Notes under the pieces: model-generated
Databases searched by the model: none
Told to the model about the DNA's origin: nothing
Seen by the model: only the letters and a program-made list of their open reading frames with translations
Assembly: GCA_951812655.1 (NCBI GenBank)
Contig: OX638319.1
Span: 1-64,000 of the forward strand
Direction of reading: 5' to 3'
DNA: 64,000 bases
Source: an uncultured Candidatus Nitrosopumilus sp.
GTDB lineage: Archaea; Thermoproteota; Nitrososphaeria; Nitrososphaerales; Nitrosopumilaceae
Shown here: one piece after another, positions 35,680 to 44,642 of the stretch
Layout: the number at the start of each line of letters is the position of its first letter
Numbering within the stretch: position 1 is the first letter of the stretch
Made by a program: the position numbers and the translations under genes

Positions 35680-36714
35680 TTACATTTTTGGATCAAGGCC
35701 TTTTGCCAATCTTAATGCATCTACTAGGCCATCTGCATACCCTATGCTCAAAATTGCAACTTCGTCTTGACCGTCCTCTAAAAATTTTTCTGCATCCCTA
35801 ACATACAGTTCTGCATTTTCCAAAATTTCGTGAAACTCCTTCTGCTCTTTGTATAGGGGGGTTACCTCTTCTAATGCTTCTCTTACCATCGGTACGTATT
35901 TTTTCATCATCTGCATTGAAATTTTCTTAACTTTTTCTGTATTATCATATGGCTCATCAACACACTGTCCAAGTATTTTCAAGGCATCCGTTTCTGTAAA
36001 ATGTAGTCTGCCTGGAATTATTATCGTGTGGGGTGGTTTTCCAAAATCTATTTCTTTGAGACTGGAAATCTTGCCTGAGATAATTTTTTGGTCTTCGAAT
36101 CCAATTCTTGAAGCAACTATGGCGTATGATGAGGGATCGATGACGTTTCTTTTTTGCCCCTTCTCTGTTTCCAAGAGTTCGTGCAATGCATCTCTTGGAT
36201 CTAAGAAAAAGTCTTTGTCTTGATTATATTCCAAAAGAAGTACTGTATGATTTCCTTCTATGATGTTTTTGTAAATTACAAAGTATGGTGTTGTAAGAGA
36301 CATTTCACTCATGATGGTTGCTATTCTGCCAATCTTGTAAAAGTGTAAACCGCATTCTCCAATCATTGATGTGAGTGATGATGATGCGTGAAGAGAATTT
36401 GTCTTGATTTTTTCTTCCATTGCCCTGGTTCTTAGCTCAATATGGGTTGTTGCAATGTATGGATCACCGTAAGCTAGTAGTGCAACTTTCTTTTTCTTTG
36501 CATTTTCCAGAATCTCTTTTCCATCTTCTACAAGCCATCTTTTTGCAAGTTTGAATTCCCCTTTTGTCGCATTCTTAATTTTGTCCAGATCTGACTTTCC
36601 AATTGGGCTGGTGAATTGTTCTAGATACACAATGTCCGCATTAGACAAAATGTCGATTGCTTCAACAGGTATCGACTTGAATCCAGAGATTCCTAAACCT
36701 ATGAACCACAGCAT
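35680..36714 (-). CDS. dphB: Diphthine synthase fused to C-terminal DUF357 domain
   Basis: 344 residues. The first 260 or so are diphthine synthase (LWFIGLGISGFKSIPVEAI, ALLAYGDPYIATTH, SSSLTSMIGECGLHFYKIG, and PPHTIIIPGRLHFTE), a SAM-dependent enzyme methylating the modified His of elongation factor 2. The last 85 residues (MMKKYVPMVREALEEVTPLYKEQ, then YVRDAEKFLEDGQDEVAILSIGYADGLVDALRL) match the helical DUF357 family, usually a separate small archaeal protein. Fusion rather than frameshift, as one uninterrupted frame covers both. It overlaps the lysK stop by 1 bp. Confidence 0.92.
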   Translation of the reverse strand: MLWFIGLGISGFKSIPVEAIDILSNADIVYLEQFTSPIGKSDLDKIKNATKGEFKLAKRWLVEDGKEILENAKKKKVALLAYGDPYIATTHIELRTRAMEEKIKTNSLHASSSLTSMIGECGLHFYKIGRIATIMSEMSLTTPYFVIYKNIIEGNHTVLLLEYNQDKDFFLDPRDALHELLETEKGQKRNVIDPSSYAIVASRIGFEDQKIISGKISSLKEIDFGKPPHTIIIPGRLHFTETDALKILGQCVDEPYDNTEKVKKISMQMMKKYVPMVREALEEVTPLYKEQKEFHEILENAELYVRDAEKFLEDGQDEVAILSIGYADGLVDALRLAKGLDPKM

Positions 36715-37841
36715 TATTTCATTTTTTTATCATGAAGTCTTTTTAAATGCTGTAGCATCTTCTTGATTATTTCTATGCCTCTGAGATATTCGTCAATTGA
36801 CACTTTTTCATCAATAGTGTGAGCCTCGTGCGGATCCCCTGGCCCGTATGTGACTACGGGAATTCCCCATTGATTTCCTAACACATTCATGTCTCCTGTG
36901 CCTGTTTTTCTGATGAGGGTAGGTCTTGAATGCTCCACTTCCATCACTCCCAGTGTAAATGCTCTGACAATTGAAGAGTTATGGGGTGCTTCAAATGGTT
37001 CTGTTTCATCCAGGATCGAATAAAACGCCTCCACCTGTCTTTCATGTGCAATCTCGTTCACACTCGTTGCAATCTTCTGTTCGATGGATTTGCAGTTCAT
37101 GTCTACGGGAATTCTGATATCAAAAATGGTTTCACATTCTTTTGGGGTCACATTGTGACTGGTCCCTCCTTTGATCTCCGTCATTGTCACTGTTAGTAGC
37201 ATTCCCTTGGTTCTGTCCTCCTGGTTTTCTTCTAATCTTTCTTTAATCTCTTTTGCAAAAACCATTGATTCCTGAATCGCATTTTTCGAAAGCCATGGTG
37301 CACTTGCATGAGAACTGTCTTCTACGCTGACTTTGAGATTGATGGCCAATCTTCCCTTGTATGCGATGGTAACTTGTTTAATCCCACTTGGTTCTCCAAA
37401 AACTGCATAATCGATATCCATTTCTTTTTTAACGAGATTTTTTATCCCCGTGGCATTCCCTTCTTCGTCTACTGCTCCTACAAAAAATACCGTTCCGTTG
37501 TTGTTTTGGATTGATGCTGCTGCAAATAGCATTGCCATAAGCGGGGCTTTTGCATCAGACGCCCCTCTTCCATAGAGTGAGTCTCCTTCTCTTCTGACTT
37601 TCACTTTGCCTGGAACCACATCCATATGTCCGCATAGCATTATTCTTGGAGTTCCTGATCCTTTTTTTGCTATGATGTTTCCAACCTCGTCAATTTGGAT
37701 GTCTTCGAATCCTAAATCATCACACTTGTCGGCCAAAAATTCAGCCATTGGTTTTTCGCTGAGAGACGGTGTATACAGCTTCAGTGCTTTTTCTAACATC
37801 TTAACTGCAAACCTTGGGGTTACCGTAAAATTAGTGTCCAA
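36714..37841 (-). CDS. lysK: [LysW]-lysine/[LysW]-ornithine hydrolase
   Basis: 375 residues of the M20 peptidase family, from a TTG start. The metal ligands are in LCGHMDVVPG (His, Asp), GRGASDAKAPL (Asp), VDEEGNATG (Glu-Glu) and GPGDPHEAHTIDE (final His). It releases lysine or ornithine from the LysW carrier in the last step of the pathway. Only one such hydrolase is seen in the block, so it probably serves both the lysine and the ornithine branches. It lies 3 bp after lysX, in the operon homocitrate synthase-lysW-lysX-lysK-dphB. Confidence 0.92.
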   Translation of the reverse strand: MDTNFTVTPRFAVKMLEKALKLYTPSLSEKPMAEFLADKCDDLGFEDIQIDEVGNIIAKKGSGTPRIMLCGHMDVVPGKVKVRREGDSLYGRGASDAKAPLMAMLFAAASIQNNNGTVFFVGAVDEEGNATGIKNLVKKEMDIDYAVFGEPSGIKQVTIAYKGRLAINLKVSVEDSSHASAPWLSKNAIQESMVFAKEIKERLEENQEDRTKGMLLTVTMTEIKGGTSHNVTPKECETIFDIRIPVDMNCKSIEQKIATSVNEIAHERQVEAFYSILDETEPFEAPHNSSIVRAFTLGVMEVEHSRPTLIRKTGTGDMNVLGNQWGIPVVTYGPGDPHEAHTIDEKVSIDEYLRGIEIIKKMLQHLKRLHDKKMK

Positions 37842-37844
37842 TTC

Positions 37845-38687
37845 TTACTTGTCTTTTTTTAGCGCATAGTTAAGTATTAAGGAAGGAATATCTACATCGC
37901 ATACTCTAACTGTGTTTTTGTATTCTGTCGTATTGTTTACTTCGTGAACCACGAGTCCTTTCTCATCGCTTTCCATCAAATCTATGCCTACGATATCTCC
38001 TTGAACCGCATTTTTTGCCTTGATGCACATTTCTTCCATTTCCTGTGTCACTTTACATGGCTCGGCAATTCCTCCTAATGCCATATTGGTTTTCCAATGT
38101 TTGGAACTTCTGTAAATTGCAGCAACAATTTTGTCTCCTACCATTATGGCTCTGATGTCTCTTGGTGGCCTTTTTACAAATTCTTCTAGGTAATGTACTT
38201 GGTATATTGGATACATGTTTTCTCTACTTTCTATAATTCCTTCAGCTGCATCTTTGTCGTTTAATTTTGAAATCAGTCTTCCCCAGCTGCCTACCGTTGG
38301 TTTGATCACTTTGGGATATCCTTGTGTTTCAAGTGCTTGTAATGCTGCATCTTTTGAAAATGCCACTGTTGCGTCTGGTGTTGGGACTCCAAATTTTTTT
38401 AACAGCATATGTGTAAACAGTTTGTTACCTGCAAAAACTCCTGTATTTAGACAGTTGATGACTCTTACTCCTAGACCTTCAAGAGCTGCTGTAGAGTGTA
38501 GGTTTCTATAGTAGCTAACGCATCTTTGAATTACCGTGCCGTAATTTTCAGGTTTTTTCTCTAAGTCTATTGCCAGTTTTTTACAATCAATCATCTGTAT
38601 GTTGATGTCGTTTTTTTTACCAGCTTCTAGTAGAGCCTTTTCTTCCCAACGGATGGTGTCGTAAAGAACAGTAACGTCAGGATTCAC
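37845..38687 (-). CDS. lysX: LysW-amino acid ligase, probable alpha-aminoadipate form
   Basis: 280 residues from a GTG at 38687 that overlaps the stop of lysW by 4 bp (GTGA). ATP-grasp ligase of the RimK group: VIKPTVGSWGRLISKL, YLEEFVKRPPRDIRAIMVG, and the Mg/carboxylate site VHEVNNTTEYKN. It joins the amino group of 2-aminoadipate to the C-terminal residue of LysW, protecting it for later steps. The aminoadipate assignment rests on the adjacent homocitrate synthase and lysK; the paralogue at 43618-44475 sits with argG. Sequence alone does not settle substrate preference. Confidence 0.88.
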   Translation of the reverse strand: MNPDVTVLYDTIRWEEKALLEAGKKNDINIQMIDCKKLAIDLEKKPENYGTVIQRCVSYYRNLHSTAALEGLGVRVINCLNTGVFAGNKLFTHMLLKKFGVPTPDATVAFSKDAALQALETQGYPKVIKPTVGSWGRLISKLNDKDAAEGIIESRENMYPIYQVHYLEEFVKRPPRDIRAIMVGDKIVAAIYRSSKHWKTNMALGGIAEPCKVTQEMEEMCIKAKNAVQGDIVGIDLMESDEKGLVVHEVNNTTEYKNTVRVCDVDIPSLILNYALKKDK

Positions 38688-38851
38688 TGTCCCCAATCCT
38701 CACCAACCGTTTGGGCCGGCTTTAGATCGAAACCGTTTGAACCTTTTGCCAATTCATAACTTGCACCACACTCTGGACATGTTACAATCTCCCCTTCCAA
38801 CGCATCACTTGGTATGGAGATATCTGCATCACATTCTTCGCATTTAGACAT
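38684..38851 (-). CDS. lysW: LysW amino-group carrier protein, unusual C-terminal Gln
   Basis: 55 residues from ATG 38851 to TGA 38684. It has the LysW zinc ribbon (CEEC at residues 4-7 and CPEC at 25-28), an acidic surface and the conserved C-terminal TVGEDWG. The last residue is Gln (codon CAG) instead of the Glu whose side-chain carboxylate accepts the amino acid in characterised LysW proteins. The second copy in this window (44475-44642) ends in Glu. The gene is immediately followed by lysX with a GTGA overlap, so the pair is presumably translated together. Whether it can still act as carrier is the open question. Confidence 0.9.
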   Translation of the reverse strand: MSKCEECDADISIPSDALEGEIVTCPECGASYELAKGSNGFDLKPAQTVGEDWGQ

Positions 38852-38873: not shown

Positions 38874-40043
38874 TTATTTATCATTAATTATCTTTTTTTC
38901 AAGTCTGTCTTCTAGGGGAATCTCGATCAGATCTCCCATTCTAAGACCTTTTAGTCCTGCAGCAACTGCTTTCGCGCCATCATTATCTTTCTCTAATCCT
39001 AACAGTGACATCAAATATGCTGCACCAGTTTTTCCTGCAAGCTCTCCAAATACTATTCTTCGTCTGTTTCCAACTGCTCTTGGAGGGATTGGCTCATAGG
39101 CTGCAGGATTTTTGAGAATTGCTGCCAGGTGGGTTCCTGCTTTGTGTTTGTATGCCGATGTGCCTACAATGGGCTTTGAATCGTATGGCTTTATTGACGT
39201 ATACTCTTCTATCAATCTTGACAGATCTAGCAACATGTCAAGTCTAAAATCATTTGGTGATTTGTACAGATATGTCAACGCAACTGCAACTTCTGCAAGA
39301 GGCGGAATGCCTGTTCTTTCTCCGATCCCGTCAATTGTAGTATGAATCTGATCAACTCCTGCATCACACGCTGAAAATGCATTTGCCACAGCAAATCCTA
39401 TGTCGTTGTGAACATGTGCGTCTAGTGGAACATCTACAACTTCTCTGACTTTTTTAACAAAATTATACATTCCAATAGGACGTAGAATTCCCACCGTGTC
39501 TGGAAGACTAATCCTATCCACTCCTGCTTCTTCTATGGCTTTGCAAACTTTTAGCAAAAATTCTGGTTCTGCTCTGCTTCCATCTTCAACTGTAAACCTG
39601 ATTTTTAAACCGTGTTCTTTTGCGTACTCCACAGTGCTTACTGCTCTTTCAAGTGCTTCTGTCCTGGAAATTCTCAGTTTGTCTTTAAGATGTATGTCTG
39701 AAATCCCTAGATATGCAGCACACCATTTTGCATCACAATCCAACGAAATATCGATGTCTTCTTTCAATGCTCTTCCATGAGAAACAATGTCCGCATTGAG
39801 TCCCTGTTTGATGATTGTTTTGGTTGCTTCCTTGTGATCATTTGACACGACTGGTGAAATTTCTATTTGGTCAACTCCGAAATAGTCTAACATCCACGCA
39901 ATCTGAATTCTTTGTTTGTTTGTAAATGACACTCCTGGATGCTGTTCTCCTTCTCTTAGTGTGCTGTCTAGCACTCTGATTTTTTTTGGACTTTTGTCAT
40001 ATGCGTTGTAAATGTTGGCATAATGATTCGGATCTTTTATCAC
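38874..40043 (-). CDS. Homocitrate synthase (2-isopropylmalate synthase family)
   Basis: 389 residues from a GTG start. The DRE-TIM metallolyase hallmarks are visible: LDSTLREGEQHPGVSF with the metal-binding Asp, RISLPDTVGIL, and AHVHNDIGFAVANAF with the HxH metal site; then GERTGIPPLAEV. It condenses acetyl-CoA and 2-oxoglutarate to homocitrate, the first step of the aminoadipate route. The neighbouring lysW-lysX-lysK genes favour homocitrate synthase over isopropylmalate or citramalate synthase. The start region overlaps one copy of a repeated element (40042-40052) flanking its TATA box, suggesting regulation. Confidence 0.92.
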   Translation of the reverse strand: MIKDPNHYANIYNAYDKSPKKIRVLDSTLREGEQHPGVSFTNKQRIQIAWMLDYFGVDQIEISPVVSNDHKEATKTIIKQGLNADIVSHGRALKEDIDISLDCDAKWCAAYLGISDIHLKDKLRISRTEALERAVSTVEYAKEHGLKIRFTVEDGSRAEPEFLLKVCKAIEEAGVDRISLPDTVGILRPIGMYNFVKKVREVVDVPLDAHVHNDIGFAVANAFSACDAGVDQIHTTIDGIGERTGIPPLAEVAVALTYLYKSPNDFRLDMLLDLSRLIEEYTSIKPYDSKPIVGTSAYKHKAGTHLAAILKNPAAYEPIPPRAVGNRRRIVFGELAGKTGAAYLMSLLGLEKDNDGAKAVAAGLKGLRMGDLIEIPLEDRLEKKIINDK

Positions 40044-40156: not shown

Positions 40157-40576
40157 TTAAATTATTTTTTTTAAAATAATTACTGTGTTGGTATCGACAA
40201 CCCCTGGAATCTTTCTTAATGCGTCTATGGTGTTGTTGATTTCTGTGATGCTTGTCGCACTCATGATTGTAGTAATGTCGTATTGTCCCGTGATTTCATA
40301 GACTGTTTTGATACCTTCTAGTTTTGCTAGTTTTAGTGACACTTTAGATGTGTCTGTTGCGGAATCTACTGAAACCAAAACTATTGCACTGGTGATATTC
40401 TTTTCTCCCAGTTCGACCGTGAATTTTTTGATAGTGCCATTGTCTACCAAGTTCTTTACTCTTCTTCGCACTGCAGATTCTGAAAGCTTTAATTTTTTTC
40501 CAATAAACACAAAAGATTCTCTGGAATCCTCTTTTAGATATTCTATTATTTTCTCGTCTACTTTATCCTTGTACAT
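40157..40576 (-). CDS. Lrp/AsnC-family regulator (LysM-like)
   Basis: 139 residues, full length. The N-terminal HTH (VDEKIIEYLKEDSRESFVFIGKKLKLSESAVRRRVKNLVDNGTI) is followed by a RAM/ligand-binding domain (SAIVLVSVDS, LEGIKTVYEITGQYDITTIMSA). It is the last gene of the arg/lys operon, overlapping argD by 14 bp, and lies 114 bp upstream of homocitrate synthase. Archaeal LysM regulates lysine genes in response to lysine; a similar role is plausible here. The stop region includes an AT hairpin (40160-40181) that could end the transcript. Confidence 0.92.
   Translation of the reverse strand: MYKDKVDEKIIEYLKEDSRESFVFIGKKLKLSESAVRRRVKNLVDNGTIKKFTVELGEKNITSAIVLVSVDSATDTSKVSLKLAKLEGIKTVYEITGQYDITTIMSATSITEINNTIDALRKIPGVVDTNTVIILKKII
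40160..40181 (-). terminator. AT-rich hairpin at end of lrp gene
   Basis: AATTATTTT and AAAATAATT form a 9-bp stem with a TTTT loop, overlapping the final lrp codons. It lies just before the homocitrate synthase promoter. An AT-only stem is weak; a role in ending the long arg operon is inferred. Confidence 0.35.
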
Positions 40577-41744
40577 TTCTTTTTTGCTCCTCTTCAGTTA
40601 GTGTGGAATCCAGAGCATGTAAAACTTTTGTCACATCTTCTTCAGTTATGACTAATGGGGGGAGGATCCTGAGTATGTTTCTCCCAGAATAGAGCATTAG
40701 GATTCCTTTTTTAATTAATGACATTAGCATGTCTCTGACTTCAAATTTCATTTCAATTCCTATCATGAGTCCCTTCCCTCTTATCTCTCGGATCATGGTG
40801 TGCTTTTCTTTCAGAACTTCTAGTCCCTCTCTAAATTTTTTCCCCATTCTTTCAGAATTTTCTATCAATCCGTCCTCTGTAAGTGAACTTAGAGCTGCAA
40901 TTCCTGCAGCACATGAAATTGGATTGCCGCCAAATGTTGATGAATGTTCACCCTTGCTCATGGAGGCCAGTACCTCTTGTTTCACGAGAGTTGCACCCAT
41001 TGGTACTCCTCCTGCAATGCCTTTTGCAAGGCACAAAATGTCGGGTGTCGTATCCCAATGATCACATGCCCATAATCGTCCGGTTCGTCCCAAACCTGCT
41101 TGAATTTCGTCAAAGATTAGCACTATTCCTTTCTCGTCACAAATTTTTCGTACTTCTTGCAAAAATCCTTCTGGTGCAACTACTATTCCACTCTCTCCCT
41201 GTATCGGTTCTAAAATTACAAAAGATGTATCTTCGTCAATTACTTCTTTTAACGACTCTATGTCTCCAAACGATGCAAATGATACTTTTTCTACTAATGG
41301 CTGAAATGCTTTTCTATACTTCGGATTAAATGTCAGTGATAAAGCTCCGAATGATTTTCCATGATACGATCCCTTCATTGCCACCATTCCCTTTTTGCCG
41401 GTGAATTTTCTTGCAAATTTCATCGCAGCCTCTATGGCTTCCGCACCACTATTGTTTAGGTGGACCTGTGTTAGGCCATCTGGTGCCAACTCGATGAGTT
41501 TAGTCAAAAATTCCTCTCTTGTTTTATTGTACAATGAGCTGTGTACTGTGATGATTTTATCTACTTGATCTTTTATTGCGTTGTTGACTCTTTGGTTTTT
41601 GTGTCCCACTAAAGCTACTCCGTATCCTCCCATGCAATCGATGTATTCTTTTCCATCCACGTCCCACACGTGAGCTCCTTCTCCTTTTTCAATTGTTACT
41701 GGAAATCTCTGATAGAGATTTCCCATAAATTGCTCTTCACTCAT
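40563..41744 (-). CDS. lysJ: LysW-gamma-semialdehyde aminotransferase (LysJ/ArgD)
   Basis: 393 residues from ATG 41744 (an in-frame TTG lies 6 bp upstream). A class III PLP aminotransferase: HLNNSGAEAIEAAMKFAR, KGSYHGKSFGALSLT, LIFDEIQAGLGRTG and the PLP lysine in CLAKGIAGGVPMGA; HSSTFGGNPISCAAG is also typical of ArgD. It transaminates the LysW-bound semialdehyde using glutamate, on both the lysine and ornithine branches by inference from single copy. It overlaps lysZ by 8 bp upstream and lrp by 14 bp downstream. Confidence 0.94.
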   Translation of the reverse strand: MSEEQFMGNLYQRFPVTIEKGEGAHVWDVDGKEYIDCMGGYGVALVGHKNQRVNNAIKDQVDKIITVHSSLYNKTREEFLTKLIELAPDGLTQVHLNNSGAEAIEAAMKFARKFTGKKGMVAMKGSYHGKSFGALSLTFNPKYRKAFQPLVEKVSFASFGDIESLKEVIDEDTSFVILEPIQGESGIVVAPEGFLQEVRKICDEKGIVLIFDEIQAGLGRTGRLWACDHWDTTPDILCLAKGIAGGVPMGATLVKQEVLASMSKGEHSSTFGGNPISCAAGIAALSSLTEDGLIENSERMGKKFREGLEVLKEKHTMIREIRGKGLMIGIEMKFEVRDMLMSLIKKGILMLYSGRNILRILPPLVITEEDVTKVLHALDSTLTEEEQKRNVQG

Positions 41745-42540
41745 GTTCAATCACCGTGCAGTTATCGTGTGCTATAGCTGATGATATGGGATTCTCTCTC
41801 TGACCGTTTCCAATCAGTGCTTCTGTCACTCCCATGTCTAACGCTTCTGTGGATGCCAAAATCTTCTTTTCCATGCCAGGTCCTATCTTGGGTCTTATCT
41901 CTTTTGCTTCGGCCAATGTCAGTTTTTCAACTAGCTTGTCATCCATTAAAAGTCCGTCAACATTTGTGATGAAAAGTACTTTGTCACATCCAATTTTGCC
42001 TGCCACATATGCTGCAGCCCTGTCTCCGTCAATATTTAGAAATTCAGAATCTTCACTCATGGCTATTGGTGAAATTACTGGTGTAAGGCCTTGCGCAAGT
42101 AATGAGTTGATGAATTCAGAATTCACTTCTCTTATCTTTCCAGTATATCCTCCGTCAATTGCCTGCTTCCTGCCTTTTTCGTTGACTATGAGTAGCTTCT
42201 TTTTCCTATCTGCTTGGATAACTTTTGCATCCACTCCTGACAGGCCAATTGCATTTATTCCATTTTTTTGAAGCATTTGTACAATCGTTTTGTTGATTCT
42301 GCCAGACATTACCATGGTGAAAATTTCTGCTGTTTCTTTATCTGTATATCTACTCTTGATGCCACTTGGAGATGTGACAAATCTTGGCTCTTTTCCAAGT
42401 TGTTTGCACACCTTTGTAACTTCTTTACCTCCGCCATGAACTATGACTATTCCTTCGGTCTCTGCCACTTTTTTAATGTCTGAAATCGTTGATTGATGTA
42501 AATCGTCTACCACGCTTCCGCCAATTTTGATGGTGATCAT
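41737..42540 (-). CDS. lysZ: [LysW]-aminoadipate/glutamate kinase (LysZ/ArgB)
   Basis: 267 residues of the amino acid kinase family. Visible are the N-terminal IKIGGSVVDD with the phosphate-binding Lys, VHGGGKEVTKVCKQLG, NIDGDRAAAYVAGKIGCDKVLFITNVDGLL and GPGMEKKILAS. It phosphorylates the side-chain carboxylate of the LysW-bound substrate. It is 2 bp after lysY/argC and overlaps lysJ. Being the only such kinase in the block, it likely acts in both pathways. Confidence 0.94.
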   Translation of the reverse strand: MITIKIGGSVVDDLHQSTISDIKKVAETEGIVIVHGGGKEVTKVCKQLGKEPRFVTSPSGIKSRYTDKETAEIFTMVMSGRINKTIVQMLQKNGINAIGLSGVDAKVIQADRKKKLLIVNEKGRKQAIDGGYTGKIREVNSEFINSLLAQGLTPVISPIAMSEDSEFLNIDGDRAAAYVAGKIGCDKVLFITNVDGLLMDDKLVEKLTLAEAKEIRPKIGPGMEKKILASTEALDMGVTEALIGNGQRENPISSAIAHDNCTVIEHE

Positions 42541-42542
42541 TT

Positions 42543-43589
42543 CTAAACTGGAGTCAGTGGGGTGTATCTTAGTCCGTCCATTTCATCAAAACCGCACATT
42601 ACATTCATGTTTTGGATGGCAGAACCTGCTGCACCTTTCATCAAGTTGTCCGATGCAGACAATGCAATCAATCTGTTGTTATCTTCATCTAAATCAAATC
42701 CAATATCGCAAAAGTTTGAACCTACTAGGAATTTTGGGTCTGGGAATTTGTATAGGCCTTTTTTGTCTCTGATCAATCTCACAAATTTCTCTTCGCCATA
42801 GGCCTGACGGTACAGTTTCCATAATTCTTTTTCTTCAACATCTTTTTTCATAAATGTGTGATTTGTACACAGAATTCCACGAACTACATCTACTGCATGT
42901 GGACTCATGGAGACCTTGATTTTCTTTCCTGCAATCTCGCTGAGTTCTTGTTCAATCTCTCCTGTGTGTCTGTGTTTAGCTGGTTTGTATGGCCTAATCA
43001 CACCTGCCCTCATGGCATGAGCAGTTCCCGAACCTGAACCTGCGCCAGATGAACCTATCTTTGAATCGACAACGATGTGATCAGTGTCAATCATGTTGTT
43101 TCTAATTAACGGTGCAAGTGCTAGCATTGATGTAACTGCCATGCATCCTGGGCATGAGACCAGCTGCGCTTTTTTAATTTCTTCTCTATGTAGCTCAGGC
43201 ACTCCGAAAACAGATTTTTCTAAATAATCTGGATGTGGGTGTTCCCATCCGTACCATTTGTCATATGCTTCTTGATCATGTAGTCTGTAATCTGCACTTA
43301 GGTCGATCACCTTGACTCCTCTATCATAGAGAGCTTTTACAATTTCAGTTGCGGTGCCGTGTGGAACTGCTGTAAACACCAAATCACATTTATCCGTAAT
43401 TTTATCGTAATCTAATTCAGAAAAAGTAAGATCTGTAAACCCTTTCAAACTTGGTTGTACTCTGTGCAGGTATTCTCCTACGTGCTGTCTGGAGGTGACC
43501 GTTGAGATCTCGACATCTGGATGGTTTACTAGTAAACGAAGTGTCTCCCCGCCTACGTATCCTGAAGCCCCTACAACTCCTACTTTCAT
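42543..43589 (-). CDS. lysY: [LysW]-phosphate reductase (LysY/ArgC)
   Basis: 348 residues of the N-acetyl-glutamyl-phosphate reductase family. The Rossmann start is GVVGASGYVGGETLRLL, with the catalytic Cys in VSCPGCMAVTSMLAL and the later His in MSPHAVDVVRG. It reduces the acyl phosphate made by LysZ to the semialdehyde with NADPH. The start is ATG at 43589, 28 bp after the argX stop; two bases separate it from lysZ. It probably serves both branches. Confidence 0.95.
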   Translation of the reverse strand: MKVGVVGASGYVGGETLRLLVNHPDVEISTVTSRQHVGEYLHRVQPSLKGFTDLTFSELDYDKITDKCDLVFTAVPHGTATEIVKALYDRGVKVIDLSADYRLHDQEAYDKWYGWEHPHPDYLEKSVFGVPELHREEIKKAQLVSCPGCMAVTSMLALAPLIRNNMIDTDHIVVDSKIGSSGAGSGSGTAHAMRAGVIRPYKPAKHRHTGEIEQELSEIAGKKIKVSMSPHAVDVVRGILCTNHTFMKKDVEEKELWKLYRQAYGEEKFVRLIRDKKGLYKFPDPKFLVGSNFCDIGFDLDEDNNRLIALSASDNLMKGAAGSAIQNMNVMCGFDEMDGLRYTPLTPV

Positions 43590-43617: not shown

Positions 43618-44475
43618 TTATTTCCTAACGTGGTTTATGGCGAATTCGATCATCTCTTTTGGTATGTTTCGTTGTGCGACTTTGGCCAATCCTTTGAATT
43701 CTACGGTATTGTTGACTTCATGAACGATTAGTCCTTTGTCCTCATCCTCCATCATGTCAATTCCTAGTATCCCTCCTCCCATTGCCTTTGATGATTTGAC
43801 TGCCAAATCCTCCATTTCTTTTGTGATCTCACAAATTTCCGGTTCTGCTCCCAGTGCGACATTGGTCTTAAATCCCCCTGAAGACTTTCTATACATGGCT
43901 GCAATGGGCTCATCTCCTACGGTTATCACTCTGATGTCTCTTGGTGGTCTTTTGATCAATTCTTGTAGATAGTAAATTCTGTCATGAGGACTATCAGTAA
44001 TGTCTCTAATTTCAAAAACTGCTTCCATGGTATCTTTATCTTTTAATGGCATCACTCCTCTTCCCCAACTCCCTATCACGGGTTTGATAACTAGGGGAAA
44101 TCCCACTTTTTCTAGATTTTCTGCAGCACTGTCGCTCGAAAATGAGAAATACGTTTTTGGTGTTGGGATGTTGTTTTTTTTCAACAGCAAAGTCATGAAC
44201 ATTTTGTTGCCACAGATGTTTGCAACCTCAAACTTGTTTAGCACTGGAACATTTAAAAATTCAAGACTAGAAGTGAAATGAAGTCCTCGGAAATAACTGA
44301 CACATCTCTCTAAAACCACATCTCCAAAATCATAGTCTTCCCTATTGCTGTCTGTGTTGATCTGAGTAATTTTTGCATCCAATAAGACGGCGTCATGACC
44401 TAGTTCTGATGCTTCCTTGTGCAGCATCTTCTCTTCGGTTCTTAGGCGGTCAAAAACGATACAGACTTTTGACAT
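43618..44475 (-). CDS. argX: LysW-amino acid ligase paralogue, probable glutamate form (ArgX)
   Basis: 285 residues of the same RimK-like ATP-grasp group as lysX: VIKPVIGSWGRGVMPL, YLQELIKRPPRDIRVITVG, and VHEVNNTVEFKG. It starts at an ATG overlapping the stop of the second lysW by 1 bp (TAATG). Next to argG and its own Glu-ended LysW, it is most simply the ligase that loads glutamate for ornithine/arginine synthesis. The lysX paralogue differs after the metal site (TTEYKNTV versus TVEFKGLA). Substrate assignment is by context. Confidence 0.87.
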   Translation of the reverse strand: MSKVCIVFDRLRTEEKMLHKEASELGHDAVLLDAKITQINTDSNREDYDFGDVVLERCVSYFRGLHFTSSLEFLNVPVLNKFEVANICGNKMFMTLLLKKNNIPTPKTYFSFSSDSAAENLEKVGFPLVIKPVIGSWGRGVMPLKDKDTMEAVFEIRDITDSPHDRIYYLQELIKRPPRDIRVITVGDEPIAAMYRKSSGGFKTNVALGAEPEICEITKEMEDLAVKSSKAMGGGILGIDMMEDEDKGLIVHEVNNTVEFKGLAKVAQRNIPKEMIEFAINHVRK

Positions 44476-44642
44476 TACTCTCCCCAGTCTTCGCCTACGG
44501 TTTCTGCTTGCTTAAGCTCGACATTTGCTCCGTCTTTTTTTGAGATTTCATAGTCGGCACCGCATTCAGGACAGGAGACTATTTCTCCCACTGAGGCATC
44601 GTCTGGGATGTTCAATTTTGCATCACATTCTGGGCAGTTCAT
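44475..44642 (-). CDS. lysW: LysW amino-group carrier protein, standard EDWGE end
   Basis: 55 residues from ATG 44642, overlapping the argG stop by 4 bp (ATGA), to TAA 44475. The zinc ribbon has CPEC at residues 3-6 and CPEC at 24-27; the end is TVGEDWGE, the Glu being the attachment site known from Thermus and Sulfolobus LysW. Its two neighbours, argG and argX, tie it to arginine synthesis. It is clearly homologous to the Gln-ended copy at 38684-38851 (same length and same C-terminal TVGEDWG). Confidence 0.93.
   Translation of the reverse strand: MNCPECDAKLNIPDDASVGEIVSCPECGADYEISKKDGANVELKQAETVGEDWGE

What the first reader, a model, noticed from the sequence alone, without database searches (positions are those of the whole stretch)
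38684..38851. LysW carrier beside LysX ends in Gln, not Glu
Two LysW copies are in the window, each directly in front of its own RimK-like ligase. The copy with argX ends EDWGE as in characterised LysW, where the side-chain carboxylate of the last Glu is the site of amide bonding to the substrate. The copy with lysX ends EDWGQ (codon CAG, one base from GAG). The GTGA overlap with lysX would be kept with either codon, so the overlap does not force the change. Possible explanations are loading on the main-chain carboxylate, deamidation to Glu before use, cross-use of the other LysW, or loss of function. If conserved, it would be a new variant of carrier chemistry that could separate the lysine and arginine branches.
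Basis: partly seen in the sequence, partly recalled or inferred. Interest (0 to 1): 0.78.

Follow-up and report, generated by a model that had tools for sequence, protein, structure and literature searches.

The report
LysW carrier encoded with terminal glutamine
All ammonia-oxidising archaea examined, and several other archaeal lineages, encode the small protein on which they build lysine (sometimes also arginine) with a final glutamine instead of the glutamate that holds the growing molecule, which implies an undescribed activation step before the carrier can be used.

Summary
The lysX-linked LysW (38684-38851, minus strand) ends EDWGQ; the argX-linked copy ends EDWGE. It is not a lone mutation. 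Of 80 named Nitrosopumilaceae-type loci, 76 end in Gln (CAG) and 4 in Glu. Gln was found in 62 of 63 sampled genomes of the window's family and in all 10 sampled genomes of two sister families, and it recurs in at least four more families of the phylum. On a tree of the partner ligases Glu and Gln interchange at least nine times (seven forced by well-supported branches). All 195 distinct EDWG-type LysW proteins examined end in Glu or Gln. Several near-complete genomes carry one LysW only, ending in Gln; three have both argX and lysX. So Gln carriers must work, and Gln is not a lysine/arginine separator. Ligases of Gln and Glu carriers share active-site motifs, and one Nitrosopumilus clade switched to Glu with almost no other pathway change. 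Best explanation: Gln is converted once to Glu on the newborn carrier, as PupQ is by Dop; LysK, which hydrolyses a gamma-amide at this same carbonyl, is the prime candidate. Rivals: amide exchange by LysX, main-chain loading.

The parts
38684..38851 (-). LysW-Q: 55-aa zinc-ribbon amino-group carrier ending EDWGQ (CAG TGA)
   Evidence: conserved Gln
38687..38689 (-). terminal Gln codon CAG of LysW-Q
   Evidence: always Gln or Glu over relatives
37845..38687 (-). LysX: ATP-grasp ligase, GTG start overlapping the LysW-Q stop codon; GSWGR and catalytic motifs intact
   Evidence: (TIGR02144, 323.9 bits, cut-off 275.6)
36714..37841 (-). LysK-type M20 hydrolase, the only relative of its kind in the genome; candidate LysW-Gln deamidase
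38874..40043 (-). homocitrate-synthase-like enzyme in front of LysW-Q
44475..44642 (-). LysW-E: second carrier, ends EDWGE, in front of argX
43618..44475 (-). ArgX: ATP-grasp ligase partner of LysW-E
   Evidence: tree position of relatives
42543..43589 (-). ArgC/LysY reductase, presumably shared by both branches
41737..42540 (-). ArgB/LysZ kinase, single copy in the genome, presumably shared by both branches
40563..41750 (-). ArgD/LysJ aminotransferase

Best explanation
LysW-Q is a working amino-group carrier made in an inactive, amidated form. Its terminal Gln side-chain amide is hydrolysed to Glu once per carrier molecule, before or at first use. From then on the protein behaves as ordinary LysW: LysX phosphorylates the gamma-carboxylate and joins it to the amino group of aminoadipate, LysZ, LysY and LysJ process the cargo, and LysK releases lysine and leaves Glu again. 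The most likely deamidase is LysK itself, because hydrolysing Glu-gamma-NH2 at the LysW C-terminus is the reaction it already performs with lysine or ornithine as leaving group. This parallels Dop, which both depupylates and converts PupQ to PupE. Shown here: the Gln, its conservation and repeated interchange with Glu, the sole-carrier genomes, the unchanged ligase motifs, and the presence of LysK in all 20 Gln genomes tested. Inferred: the deamidation, and that LysK does it (about 0.35 for LysK in particular).
For: (1) Gln is maintained: 86 of 90 lysX-linked LysW of the three ammonia-oxidiser-type families end in Gln while third bases of neighbouring codons vary. (2) LysW-Gln must carry cargo: near-complete genomes G433, G523, G547 and G264 (one contig each) and G257, G271, G354 have one LysW, ending in Gln; G433, G523 and G547 also have argG-argX with no LysW in front. 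(3) Glu and Gln interchange at least 9 times on the ligase tree, and only these two residues occur among 195 distinct LysW, as expected if both yield Glu. (4) Ligases of Gln carriers keep the motifs of Glu carriers: GSWGR, RDIR, DxxE, EVN; no column tracks the terminal residue over independent pairs (best about 2.8 of 7). (5) A Nitrosopumilus clade (L044, L049, L050, L052) switched to Glu with LysX, LysK, LysZ, LysY and LysJ unchanged except for at most two residues outside the conserved motifs. (6) LysK is the only relative of its kind in the window's genome, occurs in all 20 Gln genomes tested and keeps the M20 His/Asp/Glu residues. (7) Precedent: Pup encoded with Gln is deamidated by Dop before gamma-carboxylate ligation (PMC8599861).
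Against: No protein, mass or activity data. No dedicated deamidase gene was identified: no Pup-ligase/Dop relative in 10 genomes tested and CheD in only one. LysK occurs in Glu-only genomes too, so its presence does not discriminate. Why selection keeps a residue that must be removed is unexplained.
Confidence: 0.6

Rival explanations
1. LysX performs the first loading by amide exchange: with ADP and phosphate it turns the Gln amide into the gamma-acyl phosphate, releases ammonia, and lets aminoadipate attack. This is like the gamma-glutamyl transferase side reaction of glutamine synthetase (own knowledge). The first charge needs no net ATP; after LysK release the carrier is LysW-Glu.
For: Same sequence predictions as hydrolytic deamidation; ligase motifs unchanged; in the Pup system the deamidase is a ligase homologue that uses active-site phosphate (PMC8599861).
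Against: No precedent known to me in the RimK/LysX family; Gln carriers also serve ArgX, so both ligases would need the activity.
Confidence: 0.13
2. Gln carriers are loaded on the main-chain alpha-carboxylate of the last residue, and the side chain is only a recognition element.
For: Other RimK-family enzymes are named alpha-L-glutamate ligases; Gln and Glu would then both be allowed.
Against: Only Glu or Gln ever occurs, with no Asp, Asn, Ala or Ser; LysZ is single copy and would have to accept two geometries in one cell; at least nine Glu/Gln switches would each need a change of register with no visible change in the ligase. Characterised LysW is loaded on the gamma-carboxylate of its last Glu (PMC10433800, PMC9303977).
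Confidence: 0.14
3. LysW-Q does not carry cargo; lysX uses the LysW-E of the argX locus, and LysW-Q is a regulator, scaffold or dying gene.
For: Two LysW copies in this genome.
Against: Sole-carrier genomes with LysW-Q; strict conservation; LysW-Q kept in the HCS-LysW-LysX-LysK operon of a sister family.
Confidence: 0.05
4. Sequencing error or a lone mutation in this genome.
For: None.
Against: Independent genomes throughout the family carry the Gln at this locus.
Confidence: 0.01

Closest known systems
LysW/ArgW amino-group carrier proteins (Thermus, Sulfolobus, Thermococcus, Natrinema; NF041070, PF21344)
   Same: Zinc ribbon, EDWG tail, adjacent LysX/ArgX ligase with GSWGR motif, LysZ/Y/J/K genes; scores above the curated cut-offs
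   Different: Encoded last residue is Gln, so the gamma-carboxylate that is loaded in characterised members does not exist in the primary product
Pup (PupQ) with deamidase/depupylase Dop and ligase PafA
   Same: Small protein ligated through the gamma-carboxylate of a C-terminal Glu; encoded with Gln in some lineages and Glu in others; the enzyme that cleaves the conjugate also deamidates (PMC8599861)
   Different: No sequence relation and different ligase fold; no Pup-ligase-family gene in the genomes tested; deamidation of LysW is inferred, not shown
Streptomyces amino-group carrier proteins of secondary metabolism (Vzb22 type)
   Same: LysW-like carriers with RimK-type ligase
   Different: The six bacterial LysW-like plasmid copies read here all end in Glu

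Membership tests
LysW amino-group carrier protein | curated family score (NF041070 cut-off 75 bits; PF21344 cut-off 27 bits) | tested here: met
   89.7 and 45.6 bits
LysW amino-group carrier protein | zinc-ribbon CxxC...CxxC and acidic EDWG tail | tested here: met
   sequence; aligned to 3VPB chain E
LysW amino-group carrier protein | C-terminal Glu as encoded | tested here: not met
   Gln, codon CAG
LysW amino-group carrier protein | adjacent LysX/ArgX ligase with intact ATP-grasp and GSWGR motif | tested here: met
LysW amino-group carrier protein | covalent loading with aminoadipate or glutamate | not testable with these tools
   needs mass spectrometry
Pup-Dop-PafA pupylation | Pup-ligase/Dop family enzyme in the genome | tested here: not met
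   PF03136: 0 of 10 genomes
Pup-Dop-PafA pupylation | terminal Gln converted to Glu before ligation | not testable with these tools
   proposed by analogy only

The most novel reading that the evidence does not exclude
The Gln carrier uses a chemistry not described for amino-group carriers: either amide exchange by LysX, using the energy of the Gln amide for the first charge, or loading on the main-chain carboxylate, in all ammonia-oxidising archaea.
Probability: 0.27. Interest if true: 0.87.

Novelty: new variant of a known kind. Interest (0 to 1): 0.73.

Why it matters
Amino-group carriers are defined by a C-terminal Glu whose gamma-carboxylate holds the cargo. A whole functional guild (the ammonia-oxidising archaea, back to the common ancestor of its three families in this sample) and at least four other families encode Gln there. 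That implies an unrecognised activation step in lysine and, in some species, arginine biosynthesis. It also gives a second, unrelated case of the Gln/Glu switch known from Pup, so one can ask why selection repeatedly favours a carrier born inactive. The prediction, a mass shift of +0.98 Da, can be tested with three small recombinant proteins. The one metabolic model of an ammonia oxidiser read here adds LysW steps without noting this.

Tried and rejected
Lysine-specific marker: rejected, since argX-linked and sole carriers with Gln exist. Overlap with the lysX start forcing CAG: rejected, since the GAG TGA relatives keep the overlap and f3 genomes use CAA TAA. A compensating residue in the ligase: columns 171 (Q to E) and 259 (F to Y) differ in ammonia-oxidiser LysX, but this is one clade, is not seen in other Gln lineages and persists in the Glu revertants. 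Known deamidase families: no Dop relative, CheD in one genome only. Other terminal residues: 42 pattern-negative genomes were searched; the three LysW-like proteins with a readable carrier tail end EDYGE, and the two other short zinc-ribbon hits lack a carrier tail. A text search for EDWGQ in the paper library gave nothing. No complex of LysW-Q with LysX or LysK could be modelled, so the structure tools were not used.

Full report
Observation. The two LysW genes are as described. LysW-Q at 38684-38851 (-) ends EDWGQ with CAG TGA, and LysW-E at 44475-44642 (-) ends EDWGE. Both pass the curated cut-offs for LysW/ArgW, and they are the only two copies in the single-contig 1.67-Mb genome. The gene order is argG, LysW-E, argX, argC/lysY, argB/lysZ, argD/lysJ, an Lrp-type regulator, a homocitrate-synthase-like gene, LysW-Q, lysX, lysK, all on the minus strand.

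Conservation. A pattern for EDWG followed by Glu or Gln and a stop matched 235 of 250 genomes of the family, and in the listed part most genomes have one Glu copy and one Gln copy. In 80 named loci, 76 lysX-linked copies end in CAG TGA and 4 in GAG TGA; all 50 argX-linked copies found on these loci end in Glu. In the evenly drawn phylum sample Gln was found in 62 of 63 genomes of the window's family (f1), in all four of f2 and all six of f3, but not in f4 (one genome, two Glu copies). The LysX relatives of f1, f2 and f3 form one well-supported clade. From the named loci and genome sizes I take these to be the ammonia-oxidising families Nitrosopumilaceae, Nitrosocaldaceae and Nitrososphaeraceae; only f1 is identified by named records, f2 and f3 by inference. 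Gln also occurs in f12, f17, f35 and f38.

The Gln codon is under constraint. In 90 lysX-linked LysW of these families the last codon is CAG in 84, CAA in 2 and GAG in 4, while synonymous positions next to it vary (for example GGA/GGG/GGT/GGC in the codon before). The CAA cases and the TAA/TAG stops show that the overlap with lysX is not what keeps the Gln.

LysW-Gln must be a working carrier. A search with Pfam PF21344, independent of the terminal pattern, found only one LysW in G433, G523, G547 and G264 (one contig each, 99% complete) and in G257, G271, G299, G354, G292 and G364; in each it ends in Gln. G433, G523 and G547 have argG followed directly by argX with no LysW, and elsewhere the operon homocitrate synthase, LysW-Q, LysX, LysK. 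There one Gln carrier has to serve both branches. In G444 and G575 the argX-linked copy ends in Gln as well. The Gln therefore neither marks the lysine branch nor relies on another Glu carrier.

Interchange with Glu. On a tree of 130 partner ligases the terminal residue changes at least nine times, seven of them forced by well-supported branches. Congeners differ: G367 Gln, G332 Glu. Within f12 g63, G359 and G379 have Gln, and G305, G339 and G384 have Glu. In Nitrosopumilus a clade of four loci (one from Lake Hoare), and genome G148, have Glu at the lysX locus. Among 195 distinct EDWG-type LysW proteins 120 end in Glu and 75 in Gln, none in anything else; most of these loci were chosen by the Glu/Gln pattern, so the pattern-free searches are the fairer test, and they agree. 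LysW-like proteins of f13 and f25 end EDYGE. Six bacterial plasmid copies end in Glu.

Partners do not change. Residues invariant in ligases of Glu carriers are also invariant in ligases of Gln carriers, including the GSWGR motif that is said to recognise the EDWGE tail (PMC10433800). No ligase column follows the terminal residue over the independent pairs. In the Nitrosopumilus revertants the only residues unique to them are one near the upstream end and one at the very end of LysX, one in LysK, one in homocitrate synthase and one in LysZ; LysY and LysJ have none. The LysX one near the start lies in the overlap with LysW and is probably a consequence of the codon change itself. LysK and LysZ are single copy in the window's genome.

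Mechanism. LysX-type ligases phosphorylate a carboxylate, so an intact Gln amide cannot be charged in the usual way (established chemistry of ATP-grasp ligases). Because LysW is recycled, and LysK leaves a Glu after each release, the Gln can matter only for the newborn carrier: one conversion per molecule (inference). The repeated, unaccompanied Glu/Gln interchange and the restriction to exactly these two residues are what one expects if both end as Glu. The conversion may be done by LysK, which cleaves a gamma-amide at the same carbonyl and is present in all 20 Gln genomes tested. Pup is the precedent: where it is encoded with Gln, the depupylase Dop also deamidates it (PMC8599861). Amide exchange by LysX and main-chain loading remain possible; I give them 0.13 and 0.14.

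Limits. No biochemistry was possible. The tree was built with a quick method on about 280 columns, with some long branches; the count of nine changes is approximate, the count of seven is the conservative one. The ranking of LysK as the deamidase rests on reaction logic, not on discriminating genomic evidence.

Novelty. In the open papers searched I found no mention of EDWGQ or of Gln-ended LysW; most subscription papers were not searchable. One metabolic model of N. maritimus adds LysW steps without comment on this in the passages read (PMC6038301). I rate it a new variant of a known kind.

Noticed in passing
L221, L222, L223 (unnamed families f13 and f25 of the phylum): A LysW-like zinc-ribbon protein whose tail reads EDYGE instead of EDWGE; in L221 it sits between argB- and argG-like genes. 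A second tail variant of the carrier.
   Followed up: partly
L044, L049, L050, L052 and genome G148: A Nitrosopumilus clade, including an Antarctic lake genome, has Glu at the lysX-linked LysW with the GTG overlap kept.
   Followed up: yes
L102 (G244, family f1): A LysW ending in Gln that is not next to a ligase in the 5.5 kb read; this genome has two Gln copies and no Glu copy by pattern.
   Followed up: partly
L094, L180-L183: LysW lies between argG and lysZ-lysK with no recognisable LysX/ArgX ligase beside it; the ligase of these clusters was not located.
   Followed up: no
L166-L173 (family f5): The ligase next to LysW is only about 25% identical to ArgX, a very divergent branch that was left out of the tree.
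   Followed up: no
window 40157-40576 (-): An Lrp/AsnC-type regulator lies inside the lysine/arginine cluster and travels with lysJ in relatives.
   Followed up: no
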